Positions 29,085-49,570 of a stretch of DNA of 64,000 nucleotides are shown here, one piece after another. Position numbers and translations under genes: made by a program. The DNA comes from Ptiloglossa arizonensis. Lineage: Eukaryota > Arthropoda > Insecta > Hymenoptera > Colletidae. The notes under the pieces are model-generated. The model did no database searches. It was not told the origin of the DNA and was given only the letters and a program-made list of their open reading frames with translations. Where the stretch lies: the NCBI RefSeq assembly GCF_051014685.1, contig NC_135055.1, positions 17,100,001-17,164,000 of the forward strand, read 5' to 3'. Position 1 is the first letter of the stretch. The number at the start of each line of letters is the position of its first letter.

Positions 29085-29650
29085 GTGTGTTGACTTTCGG
29101 GAATTAATGAGGCCAAGAGGTGAGAATCTACGGGGAAAGGGAAAATACACGAGAGATCGTAGTTGGTGGTGTTGAGTACTCCGGGTGTGTTGACGTTTAG
29201 GAATTAATATGAAGATCAAAATGGGAAAAGAGAAAAGTGGGATAAAGGTTAGTGTTCAAGGAGAGTCGAGATCATTTCTGACGACGTTTGAGAAGGCAGT
29301 GGATCATCTTGGGTGTTGAGATCTAGAATTTAATAGGGACGTGTGCAAACGGTGACGTAGAAAAGTAACCTGGGTGTGTTGACGATTAGGTATTAATATG
29401 GATGCGTAAATGAAAAAATACTGGGCCATCTAGGGTATTGTAATTAATATGGACATATTCAAACGATGAAGAGAAAAATAAGAAATAATCTAGAAACATT
29501 TGGGATTGGATCAGCGTTTGAGGCGGTCTGAAAGAGGAGTCCATTTCAATGGAGAGCAGCTGGTGAATACCTCGAGTGTTGGAATTCGGGAATTAATATG
29601 GACAAGTGGTGAAAATGGAAAAAGGAGGAACGAAGATAGAGATCACCGTT
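29085..29650 (+). repeat. Degenerate repeat flanking the ETS-motif array, left
   Basis: The phrase 'gggtgtgttgac...aggaattaatatgga' or a close variant recurs near 29083, 29183, 29310, 29371, 29431 and 29571. Each is usually followed by an A/G-rich stretch. Units are 60-140 bp and strongly diverged. The same phrase family resumes after 34085, so the large array sits inside this older repeat. Confidence 0.7.
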
Positions 29651-29660
29651 GAAGCTGTCT

Positions 29661-32600
29661 AAGCTTCCGGTTGGTACCGGAAGTCTTCCGGCTAGTACCG
29701 GAAGTCCTCAACTTCCGGTTGGAACCGGAAGTCCCCTGGCACCGGAAGTCCCCTGGCACCGGAAGTCCCCTGGTACCGGAAGTCCTCAACTTCCGGTTGG
29801 AACCGGAAGTCCCCTGGTACCGGAAGTCCTCAACTTCCGGTTCGAACCGGAAGTCCCCTGGTACCGGAAGTCCTCAACTTCCGGTTGGAACCGGAAGTCC
29901 CCTGGAACCGGAAGTCCTCAACTTCCGGTTGGTACCGGAAGTCTTCGTGCTGGTACCGGAAGTCCTCAACTTCCGGTTGGAACCGGAAGTCCCCTGGTAC
30001 CGGAAGTCCTCAACTTCCGGTTGGAACCGGAAGTCCCCTGGTACCGGAAGTCCTCAACTTCCGGTTGGAACCGGAAGTCCCCTGGTACCGGAAGTCCTCA
30101 ACTTCCGGTTGGAACCGGAAGTCCCCTGGTACCGGAAGTCCTCAACTTCCGGTTGGAACCGGAAGTTCCCTGGTACCGGAAGTCCCCTGGAACCGGAAGT
30201 CCTCAACTTCCGGTTGGAACCGGAAGTCCCCTGGTACCGGAAGTCCTCAACTTCCGGTTGGAACCGGAAGTTCCCTGGTACCGGAAGTCCCCTGGTACCG
30301 GAAGTCCTCAACTTCCGGTTGGAACCGGAAGTCTTCGTGCTGGTACCGGAAGTCCTCAACTTCCGGTTGGAACCGGAAGTCTTCGTGCTGGTACCGGAAG
30401 TCCTCAACTTCCGGTTGGAACCGGAAGTCCCCTGGTACCGGAAGTCCTCAACTTCCGGTTGGAACCGGAAGTCCCCTGGTACCGGAAGTCCCCTGGAACC
30501 GGAAGTCCTCAACTTCCGGTTGGAACCGGAAGTCCCCTGGTACCGGAAGTCCCCTGGTACCGGAAGTCCCCTGGAACCGGAAGTCCTCAACTTCCGGTTG
30601 GAACCGGAAGTCCCCTGGTACCGGAAGTCCCCTGGTACCGGAAGTCCTCAACTTCCGGTTGGAACCGGAAGTCCCCTGGTACCGGAAGTCCTCAACTTCC
30701 GGTTGGAACCGGAAGTCTTCGTGCTGGTACCGGAAGTCCTCAACTTCCGGTTGGAACCGGAAGTCGCCTGGTACCGGAAGTCCTCAACTTCCGGTTGGAA
30801 CCGGAAGTCCCCTGGTACCGGAAGTCCCCTGGGACCGGAAGTCCTCAACTTCCGGTTGGAACCGGAAGTTCCCTGGTACCGGAAGTCCCCTGGAACCGGA
30901 AGTCCCCTGGAACCGGAAGTCCCCTGGAACCGGAAGTCCCCTGGTACCGGAAGTCCTCAACTTCCGGTTGGAACCGGAAGTCGCCTGGTACCGGAAGTCC
31001 TCAACTTCCGGTTGGAACCGGAAGTCCCCTGGTACCGGAAGTCCTCAACTTCCGGTTGGAACCGGAAGTCCCCTGGTACCGGAAGTCCTCAACTTCCGGT
31101 TGGAACCGGAAGTCCCCTGGTACCGGAAGTCCTCAACTTCCGGTTGGAACCGGAAGTCCCCTGGTACCGGAAGTCCCCTGGTACCGGAAGTCCTCAACTT
31201 CCGGTTGGAACCGGAAGTTCCCTGGTACCGGAAGTCCCCTGGTACCGGAAGTCCTCAACTTCCGGTTGGAACCGGAAGTCCCCTGGTACCGGAAGTCCTC
31301 AACTTCCGGTTGGAACCGGAAGTCCCCTGGTACCGGAAGTCCCCTGGTACCGGAAGTCCTCAACTTCCGGTTGGAACCGGAAGTCCCCTGGTACCGGAAG
31401 TCCCCTGGTACCGGAAGTCCCCTGGTACCGGAAGTCCTCTGGTACCGGAAGTCCCCTGGTACCGGAAGTCCTCAACTTCCGGTTGGAACCGGAAGTCCCC
31501 TGGTACCGGAAGTCCTCAACTTCCGGTTGGAACCGGAAGTTCCCTGGTACCGGAAGTCCCCTGGTACCGGAAGTCCTCAACTTCCGGTTGGAACCGGAAG
31601 TCTTCGTGCTGGTACCGGAAGTCCTCAACTTCCGGTTGGAACCGGAAGTCTTCGTGCTGGTACCGGAAGTCCTCAACTTCCGGTTGGAACCGGAAGTCCC
31701 CTGGTACCGGAAGTCCTCAACTTCCGGTTGGAACCGGAAGTCCCCTGGTACCGGAAGTCCCCTGGAACCGGAAGTCCTCAACTTCCGGTTGGAACCGGAA
31801 GTCCCCTGGTACCGGAAGTCCTCAACTTCCGGTTGGAACCGGAAGTCCCCTGGTACCGGAAGTCCTCAACTTCCGGTTGGAACCGGAAGTCCCCTGGTAC
31901 CGGAAGTCCCCTGGTACCGGAAGTCCTCAACTTCCGGTTGGAACCGGAAGTCCCCTGGTACCGGAAGTCCTCAACTTCCGGTTGGAACCGGAAGTCCCCT
32001 GGTACCGGAAGTCCCCTGGTACCGGAAGTCCCCTGGTACCGGAAGTCCTCAACTTCCGGTTGGAACCGGAAGTCCCCTGGTACCGGAAGTCCTCAACTTC
32101 CGGTTGGAACCGGAAGTCCCCTGGTACCGGAAGTCCCCTGGTACCGGAAGTCCTCAACTTCCGGTTGGAACCGGAAGTCCCCTGGTACCGGAAGTCCCCT
32201 GGTACCGGAAGTCCCCTGGTACCGGAAGTCCTCTGGTACCGGAAGTCCCCTGGTACCGGAAGTCCTCAACTTCCGGTTGGAACCGGAAGTCTTCGTGCTG
32301 GTACCGGAAGTCCTCAACTTCCGGTTGGAACCGGAAGTTCCCTGGTACCGGAAGTCCCCTGGAACCGGAAGTCCTCAACTTCCGGTTGGAACCGGAAGTC
32401 CCCTGGTACCGGAAGTCCTCAACTTCCGGTTGGAACCGGAAGTCCCCTGGTACCGGAAGTCCTCAACTTCCGGTTGGAACCGGAAGTCTTCGTGCTGGTA
32501 CCGGAAGTCCTCAACTTCCGGTTGGAACCGGAAGTTCCCTGGTACCGGAAGTCCCCTGGAACCGGAAGTCCTCAACTTCCGGTTGGAACCGGAAGTCCCC

Positions 32601-34064
32601 TGGTACCGGAAGTCCCCTGGTACCGGAAGTCCTCAACTTCCGGTTGGAACCGGAAGTCCCCTGGTACCGGAAGTCCTCAACTTCCGGTTGGAACCGGAAG
32701 TCCCCTGGTACCGGAAGTCCCCTGGTACCGGAAGTCCTCAACTTCCGGTTGGAACCGGAAGTCGCCTGGTACCGGAAGTCCTCAACTTCCGGTTGGAACC
32801 GGAAGTTCCCTGGTACCGGAAGTCCCCTGGTACCGGAAGTCCTCAACTTCCGGTTGGAACCGGAAGTCGCCTGGTACCGGAAGTCCTCAACTTCCGGTTG
32901 GAACCGGAAGTTCCCTGGTACCGGAAGTCCCCTGGAACCGGAAGTCCCCTGGTACCGGAAGTCCTCAACTTCCGGTTGGAACCGGAAGTCCCCTGGTACC
33001 GGAAGTCCCCTGGTACCGGAAGTCCTCAACTTCCGGTTGGAACCGGAAGTCGCCTGGTACCGGAAGTCCTCAACTTCCGGTTGGAACCGGAAGTCCCCTG
33101 GTACCGGAAGTCCTCAACTTCCGGTTGGAACCGGAAGTCCCCTGGTACCGGAAGTCCTCAACTTCCGGTTGGAACCGGAAGTCCCCTGGTACCGGAAGTC
33201 CCCTGGTACCGGAAGTCCTCAACTTCCGGTTGGAACCGGAAGTTCCCTGGTACCGGAAGTCCCCTGGTACCGGAAGTCCTCAACTTCCGGTTGGAACCGG
33301 AAGTTCCCTGGTACCGGAAGTCCCCTGGAACCGGAAGTCCTCAACTTCCGGTTGGAACCGGAAGTCCCCTGGTACCGGAAGTCCCCTGGTACCGGAAGTC
33401 ATCAACTTCCGGTTGGAACCGGAAGTCCCCTGGTACCGGAAGTCCTCAACTTCCGGTTGGAACCGGAAGTCCCCTGGTACCGGAAGTCCTCAACTTCCGG
33501 TTGGAACCGGAAGTCTTCGTGCTGGTACCGGAAGTCCTCAACTTCCGGTTGGAACCGGAAGTCTTCGTGCTGGTACCGGAAGTCCTCAACTTCCGGTTGG
33601 AACCGGAAGTCCCCTGGTACCGGAAGTCCCCTGGTACCGGAAGTCCCCTGGAACCGGAAGTCCTCAACTTCCGGTTGGAACCGGAAGTCCCCTGGAACCG
33701 GAAGTCCTCAACTTCCGGTTGGAACCGGAAGTCGCCTGGTACCGGAAGTCCTCAACTTCCGGTTGGAACCGGAAGTCCCCTGGTACCGGAAGTCCTCAAC
33801 TTCCGGTTGGAACCGGAAGTCCCCTGGTACCGGAAGTCCTCAACTTCCGGTTGGAACCGGAAGTCCCCTGGTACCGGAAGTCCTCAACTTCCGGTTGGAA
33901 CCGGAAGTCCCCTGGTACCGGAAGTCCCCTGGTACCGGAAGTCCTCAACTTCCGGTTGGAACCGGAAGTTCCCTGGTACCGGAAGTCCCCTGGAACCGGA
34001 AGTCCTCAACTTCCGGTTGGAACCGGAAGTCCCCTGGTACCGGAAGTCCTCAGCTTCCGATTGG
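29661..34064 (+). repeat. 4.4-kb GC-rich minisatellite made of ETS-type motifs
   Basis: Built from three unit types that all begin CCGGAAGT. The short unit is 17 bp (CCGGAAGTCCCCTGGTA), the long unit 27 bp and the medium unit 21 bp (CCGGAAGTCTTCGTGCTGG plus TA). The long unit consists of CCGGAAGTCCTCA followed by CTTCCGGTTGGAA, and with the next unit it forms a palindrome with 10-bp arms AACCGGAAGT around a GG spacer. By eye I counted about 80 long and 10 medium units; the remaining length implies about 120 short ones. Short-unit variants include TTCCC, TCGCC and TCCTC in place of TCCCC, and TA or AA at the end. Outermost units (29661-29700 and 34050-34064) are the most diverged. GC is about 60 percent against AT-rich flanks. 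No unit contains ATG or a plus-frame stop, so all three plus frames stay open for more than 1390 codons; this is a by-product of the repeat and not evidence of a gene. Confidence 0.98.
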
Positions 34065-34084
34065 TTGTTATCAAAGAATAAGAA

Positions 34085-34460
34085 AATTACTGGTTATCTT
34101 AGTCGTTGGCTTTTAGACATAAATATGGACCAGCGTCGAAGACGGGAGAAGAAACGAATATGAAAAATAATCTGCAAACGTTCGAGGCTAAGAAAGTTCG
34201 TGTCTAGCGACAAATCGGGGTAGCCTTGGGTGTCCACTGTCAGGAAATACTATGAACGGGAGATAAAAAACGTGGAGAAGAAATCCAGAAATTAATACAA
34301 AAAAAAAGTGGCAGACTGTATAAAAGAAATAAAGATTAGAAATAATCTACATTTGGAAGCAAACTCAAGTCCGGGTCTACCGAAGAATAAGAAGAGTTGT
34401 ACTTGGGTGTTGACTCTCAGGAATTAATATGGATAGAAGATAAAACCGGTGGTGAAGAAA
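34085..34460 (+). repeat. Degenerate repeat flanking the ETS-motif array, right
   Basis: Phrases matching the left flank resume here: 'ggcttttagacataaatatggac' at about 34109, 'ttgggtgtccactgtcaggaaata' at about 34226 and 'ttgggtgttgactctcaggaattaatatgga' at about 34403. Each is followed by a 'gaagaaa' A/G-rich stretch. This places the array within, and not beside, the older repeat. Confidence 0.7.
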
Positions 34461-47944: not shown

Positions 47945-49570
47945 ATTCTACGAAGCTCTCACACTGATGGATATGTTCTCCACAGTCACGCGGAACTCGA
48001 GGTTCTAAAATCCGAAGCTATTTTAATCGCCACTGGAGAGTAGTCTTGGAAAGCTTCTTTTTTTTTTTTTTGAATGCAGACCATTTTTAGAAACAGTGGC
48101 TTTGGTTGGTTGTTCATTCGTCTCGAGAGGGAAGTTTTAACGATTTTGAGAAATATATTTTTGCATTCTTTCGAGTGCAAAATTATTCTTTTTAATCGAG
48201 AGATCACAGTCTCTTTAATCGACACTGGAGGAGTCTTGGAAAGTCGAAGTTTGTGGAAAGTTTCTTTTTTTTATTGTAGACCATTTTTAGAAACAGTGGC
48301 TTTAGTTGGTTGTTCATTCGTCTCGAGAGGGAAACTGGCGATTTTGAGAAATATATTTTTACATTCTTTCGAGTGAAAAATTATTCTTTTCAATCGAGAG
48401 ATCACAGTCTCTTTAATCGCCACTAGAGGAGTCTTGGAAAGTCGAAGTTTGTGGAAAGTTTCTTTTTTTTATTGTAAACCATTTTTAGAAACAGTGGCTT
48501 TAGTTGGTTGTTCATTCGTCTCGAGAGGGAAACTGGCGATTTTGAGAAATATATTTTTGCATTCTTTCGAGTGCAAAATTATTCTTTTTAATCGAGAGAT
48601 CACAGTCTCTTTAATCGACACTGGAGGAGTCTTGGAAAGTCGAAGTTTGTGGAAAGTTTCTTTTTTTTATTGTAAACCATTTTTAGAAACAGTGGCTTTA
48701 GTTGGTTGTTCATTCGTCTCGAGAGGGAAACTGGCGATTTTGAGAAATATATTTTTGCATTCTTTCGAGTGCAAAATTATTCTTTTTAATCGAGAGATCA
48801 CAGTCTCTTTAATCGCCACTGGAGGAGTCTTGGAAAGTCGAAGTTTGTGGAAAGTATCTTTTTTTTATTGTAAACCATTTTTAGAAACAGTGGCTTTAGT
48901 TGGTTGTTCATTCGTCTCGAGAGGGAAGTTTTAACGATTTTGAGAAATATATTTTTGCATTCTTTCGAGTGCAAAATTATTCTTTTTAATCGAGAGATCA
49001 CAGTCTCTTTAATCGACACTGGAGGAGTCTTGGAAAGTCGAAGTTTGTGGAAAGTTTCTTTTTTTTATTGTAGACCATTTTTAGAAACAGTGGCTTTAGT
49101 TGGTTGTTCATTCGTCTCGAGAGGGAAACTGGCGATTTTGAGAAATATATTTTTGCATTCTTTCGAGTGCAAAATTATTCTTTTTAATCGAGAGATCACA
49201 GTCTCTTTAATCGACACTGGAGGAGTCTTGGAAAGTCGAAGTTTGTGGAAAGTTTCTTTTTTTTATTGTAGACCATTCTTAGGCAAAGTGACTTTAGTTG
49301 GTTGTTTATTTGTCTCGAGAGGGAAGCTTTGGCGATTTTGAGAAATATATTTTTGCATTCTTTCGAAAATTACGAAGCCCTCACACCGATGGATATATTC
49401 CAGCCTCTTTAATCATAATTGAAGGAGTCTTGGAAAGTTTGTGGAAAGTTTCCTTTTTTAATTGTAGACCATTTTTAAGGAAAGTGACTTTAGCTCATTG
49501 TTTATTTGTCTCGAGAGGGAAGCTTCGATGATTGTACGAAATATCTTCTTTGCATTATTTCGAAAATTTT
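47945..49570 (+). repeat. 198-bp tandem array, about 7.5 copies
   Basis: 'gtcttgga' starts at 48043, 48233, 48431, 48629, 48827, 49027, 49225 and 49427, giving spacings of 190, 198, 198, 198, 200, 198 and 202. Central copies are nearly identical. The unit contains 'ttttagaaacagtggcttt', 'ttcattcgtctcgagaggga' and 'ttgagaaatatatttttg'. The outermost units differ: 'tacgaagc.ctcacac.gatggata' is found only at the left edge (about 47949) and the right edge (about 49369). Because 198 is a multiple of three, frames run through several copies, but they start at non-ATG codons and are not genes. Confidence 0.96.

What the first reader, a model, noticed from the sequence alone, without database searches (positions are those of the whole stretch)
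29661..34064. A 4.4-kb array containing hundreds of consensus ETS binding sites
Seen: every one of about 200 units contains CCGGAAGT, almost always as ACCGGAAGT, and about 80 long units add the reverse-oriented site. Known: ACCGGAAGT is the high-affinity core for class I ETS factors (GABPA/ELK/ETS type; Pointed, Aop and Ets97D in flies). In human cells, EWS-FLI1 turns simple GGAA repeats into enhancers. Inference: an array this dense could act as an ETS sink or an unusual enhancer. It could also be a neutral satellite whose unit happens to match. I do not know of a described insect satellite of this kind.
Basis: partly seen in the sequence, partly recalled or inferred. Interest (0 to 1): 0.88.

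Follow-up and report, generated by a model that had tools for sequence, protein, structure and literature searches.

The report
ETS-motif arrays, one per chromosome
A short block of DNA packed with copies of one nine-letter protein-binding sequence has sister blocks at a single place on at least ten other chromosome-sized pieces of the same genome, which looks more like a chromosome-level landmark than a local gene switch.

Summary
Positions 29661-34064 carry 208 forward and 80 reverse ACCGGAAGT, none elsewhere in the window, against a shuffled mean of 0.65. Units are 17, 27 and 21 nt.

The larger result lies outside the window. The same family occurs on at least 11 chromosome-scale contigs of the 998.7-Mb assembly (C1, C3-C12). 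All 360 listed word matches fall at one locus per contig, 58-75% along it; 964 further matches were not listed. Flanks tested are unrelated between chromosomes. Nine arrays read show differing spacer variants, while copies with a mutated motif rarely spread (most copies 11, versus 96 for spacer variants); in decayed edges motif and spacer differ about equally.

I favour a clustered binding site per chromosome, pairing-centre-like or architectural. The main rival, nearly as likely, is a neutral minisatellite homogenised within chromosomes and seeded between them.

Not shown: binding; ETS genes in this genome (search did not complete); other insects; C2 and C13-C16. The binder may not be an ETS protein, since the TGG before the motif is also fairly constant.

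The parts
29661..34064 (+). Whole array: 208 forward ACCGGAAGT and 80 reverse, in 17-, 27- and 21-nt units
29661..29705 (+). Left edge: irregular first units (AAGCTTCCGGTTGGTACCGGAAGT, then CTTCCGGCTAGTACCGGAAGT)
34048..34064 (+). Right edge: last, broken unit CCTCAGCTTCCGATTGG
30154..30453 (+). 300-nt block with a 99% copy at 31423-31722: several units copied at once
30724..31023 (+). 300-nt block with a 97% copy at 31239-31538
29087..29616 (+). Left part of a decayed flanking repeat (GTGTTGA...GGAATTAATATGGA) in which the array lies
   Evidence: families D4 and D5 (61-80% identity); short families of this kind can be chance
34098..34447 (+). Right part of the same decayed flanking repeat
   Evidence: families D4 and D5

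Best explanation
The array is the C8 member of a dispersed family of ETS-consensus minisatellites with, as far as listed, one locus on each of at least 11 chromosome-scale contigs. SHOWN: shared unit grammar, a single listed locus per contig, interstitial position at 58-75% of contig length, no shared flanks among those tested, homogenisation within arrays, and retention of the nine-base motif in the nine arrays read. INFERRED: each array works as one dense multivalent binding site per chromosome for a sequence-specific protein, most simply an ETS-domain factor, although another protein reading TGGNACCGGAAGT fits too. Loading of many molecules would make a chromosomal landmark, used for example to bring homologues together at meiosis (as pairing centres do in C. 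elegans) or to set a large-scale chromatin boundary (as DXZ4 does on the mammalian X). Unequal exchange grows and homogenises each array, while units with a broken motif fail to spread because they add no binding.
For: One listed locus per contig on C1 and C3-C12 with six different words (complete lists in 45, 80, 95, 139). Narrow relative position, P about 2e-7 under uniform placement, 1.6e-4 ignoring orientation; 11 random loci on 11 different of the 12 largest contigs, P about 5e-4. No similarity between 12 flank stretches of 8 arrays, so not one duplicated segment. Motif variants reach 5% of their array in 6 of 55 cases, spacer variants in 39 of 79 (25 of 52 without the base before the motif), Mann-Whitney p 6e-6 and 1.8e-4; 131 decayed edge units show about equal motif and spacer differences, 9.2% and 11.3% (8.4% without the alternating last base). 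ACCGGAAGT in tandem is an established ETS probe (PMC12183613 passages).
Against: No binding, chromatin or expression data. ETS genes were not confirmed in this genome. The 27-nt spacer and the TGG before the motif are also nearly constant, so the footprint is wider than an ETS site. Variants shared between arrays are not independent, so the p values are optimistic. The number of distinct motif variants is only modestly low (35 seen, about 53 expected, eight arrays). Arrays differ about tenfold in size (1.9 to 21 kb). C2 gave no match in any of six words, five of whose lists reach past C2 and one of which is complete with 3 hits; C13-C16 gave none in the complete lists. The reverse matches were mostly not listed.
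Confidence: 0.45

Rival explanations
1. Neutral minisatellite: a short GC-rich unit spread between non-homologous chromosomes by ectopic exchange or extrachromosomal circles and is homogenised within each chromosome by unequal exchange. The ETS match is incidental, and the similar position on each chromosome reflects where such arrays persist or how chromosomes touch in the nucleus.
For: Homogeneous cores, decayed edges on C1, C3, C4, C5 and C6, variants that differ between arrays, and block duplications are all ordinary satellite behaviour. The window is rich in other minisatellites.
Against: One listed locus per contig at 58-75% of its length; motif variants spread far less than spacer variants, with decayed edges as a control.
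Confidence: 0.4
2. Local ETS enhancer or ETS sink acting at this locus.
For: Dense consensus sites; GGAA microsatellites serve as EWS-FLI1 response elements (PMC2654724, search listing and abstract start only).
Against: Arrays of the same family on at least 10 other contigs with unrelated flanks; no recognised gene beside it in the 10 open frames scanned.
Confidence: 0.07
3. Centromeric or pericentromeric repeat, one per chromosome by definition.
For: One listed locus per contig, interstitial and at a similar fraction.
Against: Arrays are only 1.9-21 kb and lie in complex, non-satellite flanks without gaps in the fetched stretches. A 177-nt satellite occurs near contig ends in samples of C4, C8 and C10. 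The centromere positions are unknown.
Confidence: 0.07
4. A repetitive protein-coding sequence read as DNA.
For: Stop-free over 1461-1507 codons in each plus frame.
Against: All three plus frames are almost stop-free alike (0, 0 and 1 stops here; 0-2 per frame for C3, C4, C5), because the units hold no stop triplet, and units of 17 nt shift the frame. No protein relative among the 7992 candidates scored for a 250-aa piece.
Confidence: 0.01

Closest known systems
C. elegans meiotic pairing centres (HIM-8/ZIM sites)
   Same: A specialised region on each chromosome carrying motifs for a DNA-binding protein family (PMC8455136 passages).
   Different: Different motif class; one motif family here for all chromosomes read; one tight tandem array in mid-contig, where the recalled worm centres are dispersed motifs near one chromosome end. 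No meiotic role shown here.
DXZ4 macrosatellite of the mammalian X
   Same: A single interstitial tandem array of a protein-binding motif on a chromosome (abstract starts).
   Different: DXZ4 has 3-kb units, binds CTCF and is on one chromosome only; here the units are 17-27 nt, ETS-like, on at least 11 contigs.
GGAA microsatellites bound by EWS-FLI1
   Same: Tandem ETS-core sites.
   Different: Those are simple GGAA runs (titles and abstract starts); here full ACCGGAAGT sites are spaced 17-27 nt, and no fusion protein is involved.
Ordinary satellite or minisatellite families with concerted evolution
   Same: Homogeneous core, decayed edges, variants that differ between arrays.
   Different: A single listed locus per chromosome-scale contig in a narrow relative position, with motif-breaking copies rarely spreading.

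Membership tests
Tandem-repeat minisatellite family | Head-to-tail short units with within-array homogenisation | tested here: met
ETS binding-site cluster | Consensus ETS sites far above chance | tested here: met
   288 against 0.65 expected; probe identity from PMC12183613
ETS binding-site cluster | Bound by ETS protein in vivo; ETS genes present in this genome | not tested
   No chromatin data; the PF00178 search was sent ten times and never answered
EWS-FLI1-type GGAA microsatellite | Uninterrupted GGAA tetranucleotide repeats | tested here: not met
   Units are 17, 21 and 27 nt with one or two full sites each
Meiotic pairing centre | One motif-bearing region on every chromosome | tested here: inconclusive
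   One listed locus on C1 and C3-C12; C2 and C13-C16 not found or not settled
Meiotic pairing centre | Recruits proteins that drive homologue pairing | not testable with these tools
   Needs cytology
DXZ4-type boundary array | Chromatin boundary with CTCF bound | not testable with these tools
   No Hi-C or ChIP data
Centromeric satellite | CENP-A-bound array in a repeat-rich heterochromatic block | tested here: inconclusive
   Flanks fetched are complex DNA; CENP-A not testable

The most novel reading that the evidence does not exclude
An insect (probably hymenopteran) genome carries a one-per-chromosome system of ETS-consensus arrays that act as chromosome-level docking sites, a counterpart of pairing centres, in which a transcription-factor motif has been recruited for chromosome organisation and is kept by selection while the rest of the repeat turns over.
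Probability: 0.22. Interest if true: 0.93.

Novelty: new variant of a known kind. Interest (0 to 1): 0.74.

Why it matters
A repeat family with a consensus transcription-factor motif at a single listed interstitial place on each of at least 11 chromosome-scale contigs, in a narrow relative position, with motif-breaking copies rarely spreading, is either a chromosome-level functional element or an unusually clean case of concerted evolution between chromosomes. Either can be tested directly: the fetched arrays have unrelated flanks, and one oligo probe to the unit should mark one site per chromosome. If a function is confirmed, it would link a conserved transcription-factor motif to chromosome pairing or folding.

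Tried and rejected
Protein-coding reading: rejected because all three plus frames are open alike; one protein search scored 7992 candidates, none at E 0.001 or better. RNA families and tRNAs: none found in the window. Pfam on 10 open frames of the window: nothing above its cut-off. One 22-nt unit word in viral and prokaryote contigs: 0 matches; this says nothing about other insects. Species: Xylocopa violacea was considered because of genome size, but its assembly (1300 scaffolds, largest 71.42 Mb; PMC11589580, part 1 of 6 and passages) does not match ours (2016 contigs; C1 at 36.13 Mb is the longest of C1-C20). The hymenopteran guess rests on CpG observed/expected of 1.45 and 1.60 outside the array and on recall. 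Single-strand folding is strong in the one 300-nt stretch tried (z -4.8 as RNA plus strand, -6.2 as DNA minus strand), as expected for inverted repeats, and was not pursued. Literature: four searches gave no description of such arrays (2, 0, 1 and 0 papers listed); other wordings were not tried. Composition samples (19 on C8, one of them all N; 10 each on C4 and C10) hinted at an array near a GC change on C4 and C8 but not on C10; dropped.

Full report
CHECK. The window holds 288 ACCGGAAGT on both strands, all inside 29661-34064 (208 forward, 80 reverse), where 100 dinucleotide shuffles of the window give 0.65 on average and 3 at most. Every forward CCGGAAGT of the array is preceded by A. Between successive motifs there are 116 units of 17 nt, 80 of 27 nt and 11 of 21 nt. 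The 27-nt unit holds an inverted pair of sites, ACTTCCGGTTGGAACCGGAAGT. Two 300-nt blocks have near-copies 0.5 and 1.3 kb away (97% and 99%), so the array grows by copying several units at once.

BEYOND THE WINDOW. The window lies in an assembly of 998.7 Mb in 2016 contigs, at contig C8 17.10-17.16 Mb. ACCGGAAGT occurs 11,374 times genome-wide, against 635 for the backwards-read control, but the eight loci first fetched from C1 each hold a single isolated site, so the bare nine-mer is not the family marker. Longer words from the units are; each had 0 matches for its backwards-read control. CTTCCGGTTGGAACCGGAAGT gives 312 + 731 matches (first 100 listed: C3, C4, C5). An array-edge word gives 3 of 3 on C3, C4, C5. 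A 21-nt-unit word gives 121, of which 100 listed, on C1, C3, C4, C5, C6, C8, C9, C10. A second 21-nt form gives 49 of 49 on C3, C4, C8. A 27+17 junction gives 29 of 29 on C4, C8, C9, C10, C11. A 27+27 junction gives 79 of 79 on C1, C3-C7, C9-C12. In all 360 listed places each contig has one locus only. 943 places and 21 were not listed, so second loci with other variants, and arrays on C2 or C13-C16, are not excluded; C2 appeared in none of the lists.

SIZES AND PLACES. Extents: C1 1.9 kb, C3 2.8, C4 9.6, C5 2.8, C6 9.2, C8 4.4, C9 17.9, C10 21.3, C11 19.3 kb (the middles of C6, C9, C10 and C11 were not fetched and are taken as continuous from word positions). C7 and C12 were not fetched; their words span about 4 and 7 kb. 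Fractions of contig length for C1 and C3-C12 in order: 0.591, 0.594, 0.663, 0.682, 0.644, 0.700, 0.700, 0.581, 0.596, 0.752, 0.625. Under uniform placement a range this narrow has P about 2e-7, or 1.6e-4 when contig orientation is ignored; 11 random loci on the 12 largest contigs would all be on different ones with P about 5e-4. Contig ends include satellite (a 177-nt repeat in samples of C4, C8, C10), and one C8 sample was all N, so fractions are approximate and contig orientation may not be arbitrary.

ANATOMY OF THE FAMILY. Nine arrays were read, five whole (C1, C3, C4, C5, C8) and four in part (C6, C9, C10, C11). They share 17-nt and 27-nt units (the long unit is mostly 28 nt on C10) and 21-nt units, though the last are rare or absent in some stretches. 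Spacer variants differ between arrays: for example CCTCTGG is common on C1, C5 and C6, CGCC occurs on C8 and C11, and the 28-nt unit was seen only on C10. Edges of C1, C3, C4, C5 and C6 are decayed 19-nt units (ACTTCCGGTTTGGTCCTCC and relatives), which look like an older form; C8 has no such edge. Flanks share nothing between chromosomes in 12 stretches of 0.6-12 kb from 8 arrays, blastn 1e-5. So these arrays are not copies of one duplicated segment.

MOTIF RETENTION. In 1738 tokenised units (C1 50, C3 74, C4 429, C5 108, C6 251, C8 207, C9 157, C10 307, C11 155) I compared variants inside the motif with variants in the spacer. The 55 motif variants reach at most 11 copies, and that case is the first base of the motif on C11; the 79 spacer variants reach up to 96. 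6 of 55 motif and 39 of 79 spacer variants reach 5% of their units (25 of 52 without the base just before ACCGG). Mann-Whitney p is 6e-6, or 1.8e-4 without that base. Per-base differences are 0.40% in the motif and 2.5% in the spacer (that base left out). In 131 decayed edge units from six edge stretches the figures are 9.2% and 11.3%, or 8.4% for the spacer without its alternating last base, so the motif is not simply less mutable. Limits: unit types with fewer than 8 copies in an array were left out; variants shared between arrays are not independent; most spread spacer variants sit at a few positions; the 27-nt spacer and the TGG before the motif are also fairly constant; and the count of distinct motif variants alone is only modestly low (35 seen, about 53 expected of 90, in the eight arrays). 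I read this as suggestive of selection, not proof.

MECHANISM. Best supported, by a narrow margin: a clustered, multivalent binding site, one per chromosome. The motif is a recognised ETS consensus (three tandem ACCGGAAGT are the ETS probe in PMC12183613, passages). Whether this genome's ETS proteins exist and bind is untested; the Pfam ETS search did not complete. The closest analogy for one motif-bearing site per chromosome is the C. elegans pairing centre (PMC8455136 passages); for one interstitial tandem array it is DXZ4 (abstract starts). Membership in either is not claimed. The neutral-satellite rival is nearly as likely.

SURROUNDINGS. On C8 the array lies within a decayed GTGTTGA...GGAATTAATATGGA repeat found on both sides. 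The window has many other minisatellites, no Rfam or tRNA hit, and no Pfam hit above cut-off in 10 open frames.

Noticed in passing
L071 (C4:1000001), L035 (C8:1000001), L090 (C10:18000001): A 177-nt tandem repeat fills these samples near contig ends, so it may be a major satellite of this genome.
   Followed up: no
L081 (C10:500001): A 7-nt tandem repeat fills the sampled 1.2 kb, with CpG observed/expected of 5.3.
   Followed up: no
L055, right edge of the C11 array: Just beyond the array lies a run of AATCC-type repeats (AATCCCCGGCT, AATCCGAT and similar).
   Followed up: no
L031 (C1:21349501-21352500): The C1 array changes orientation near its right end: forward units are followed by reverse ones.
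   Followed up: partly
window 48061-49366: A 198-nt repeat, 6.6 copies at 95% match, one of many minisatellites in the window.
   Followed up: no
window 29640-34163, plus strand: All three plus frames are open over 1461-1507 codons because the units hold no stop triplet; automatic annotation could call a false gene here.
   Followed up: yes
window 29087-29616 and 34098-34447: A decayed repeat with a GTGTTGA...GGAATTAATATGGA core lies on both sides of the array.
   Followed up: partly
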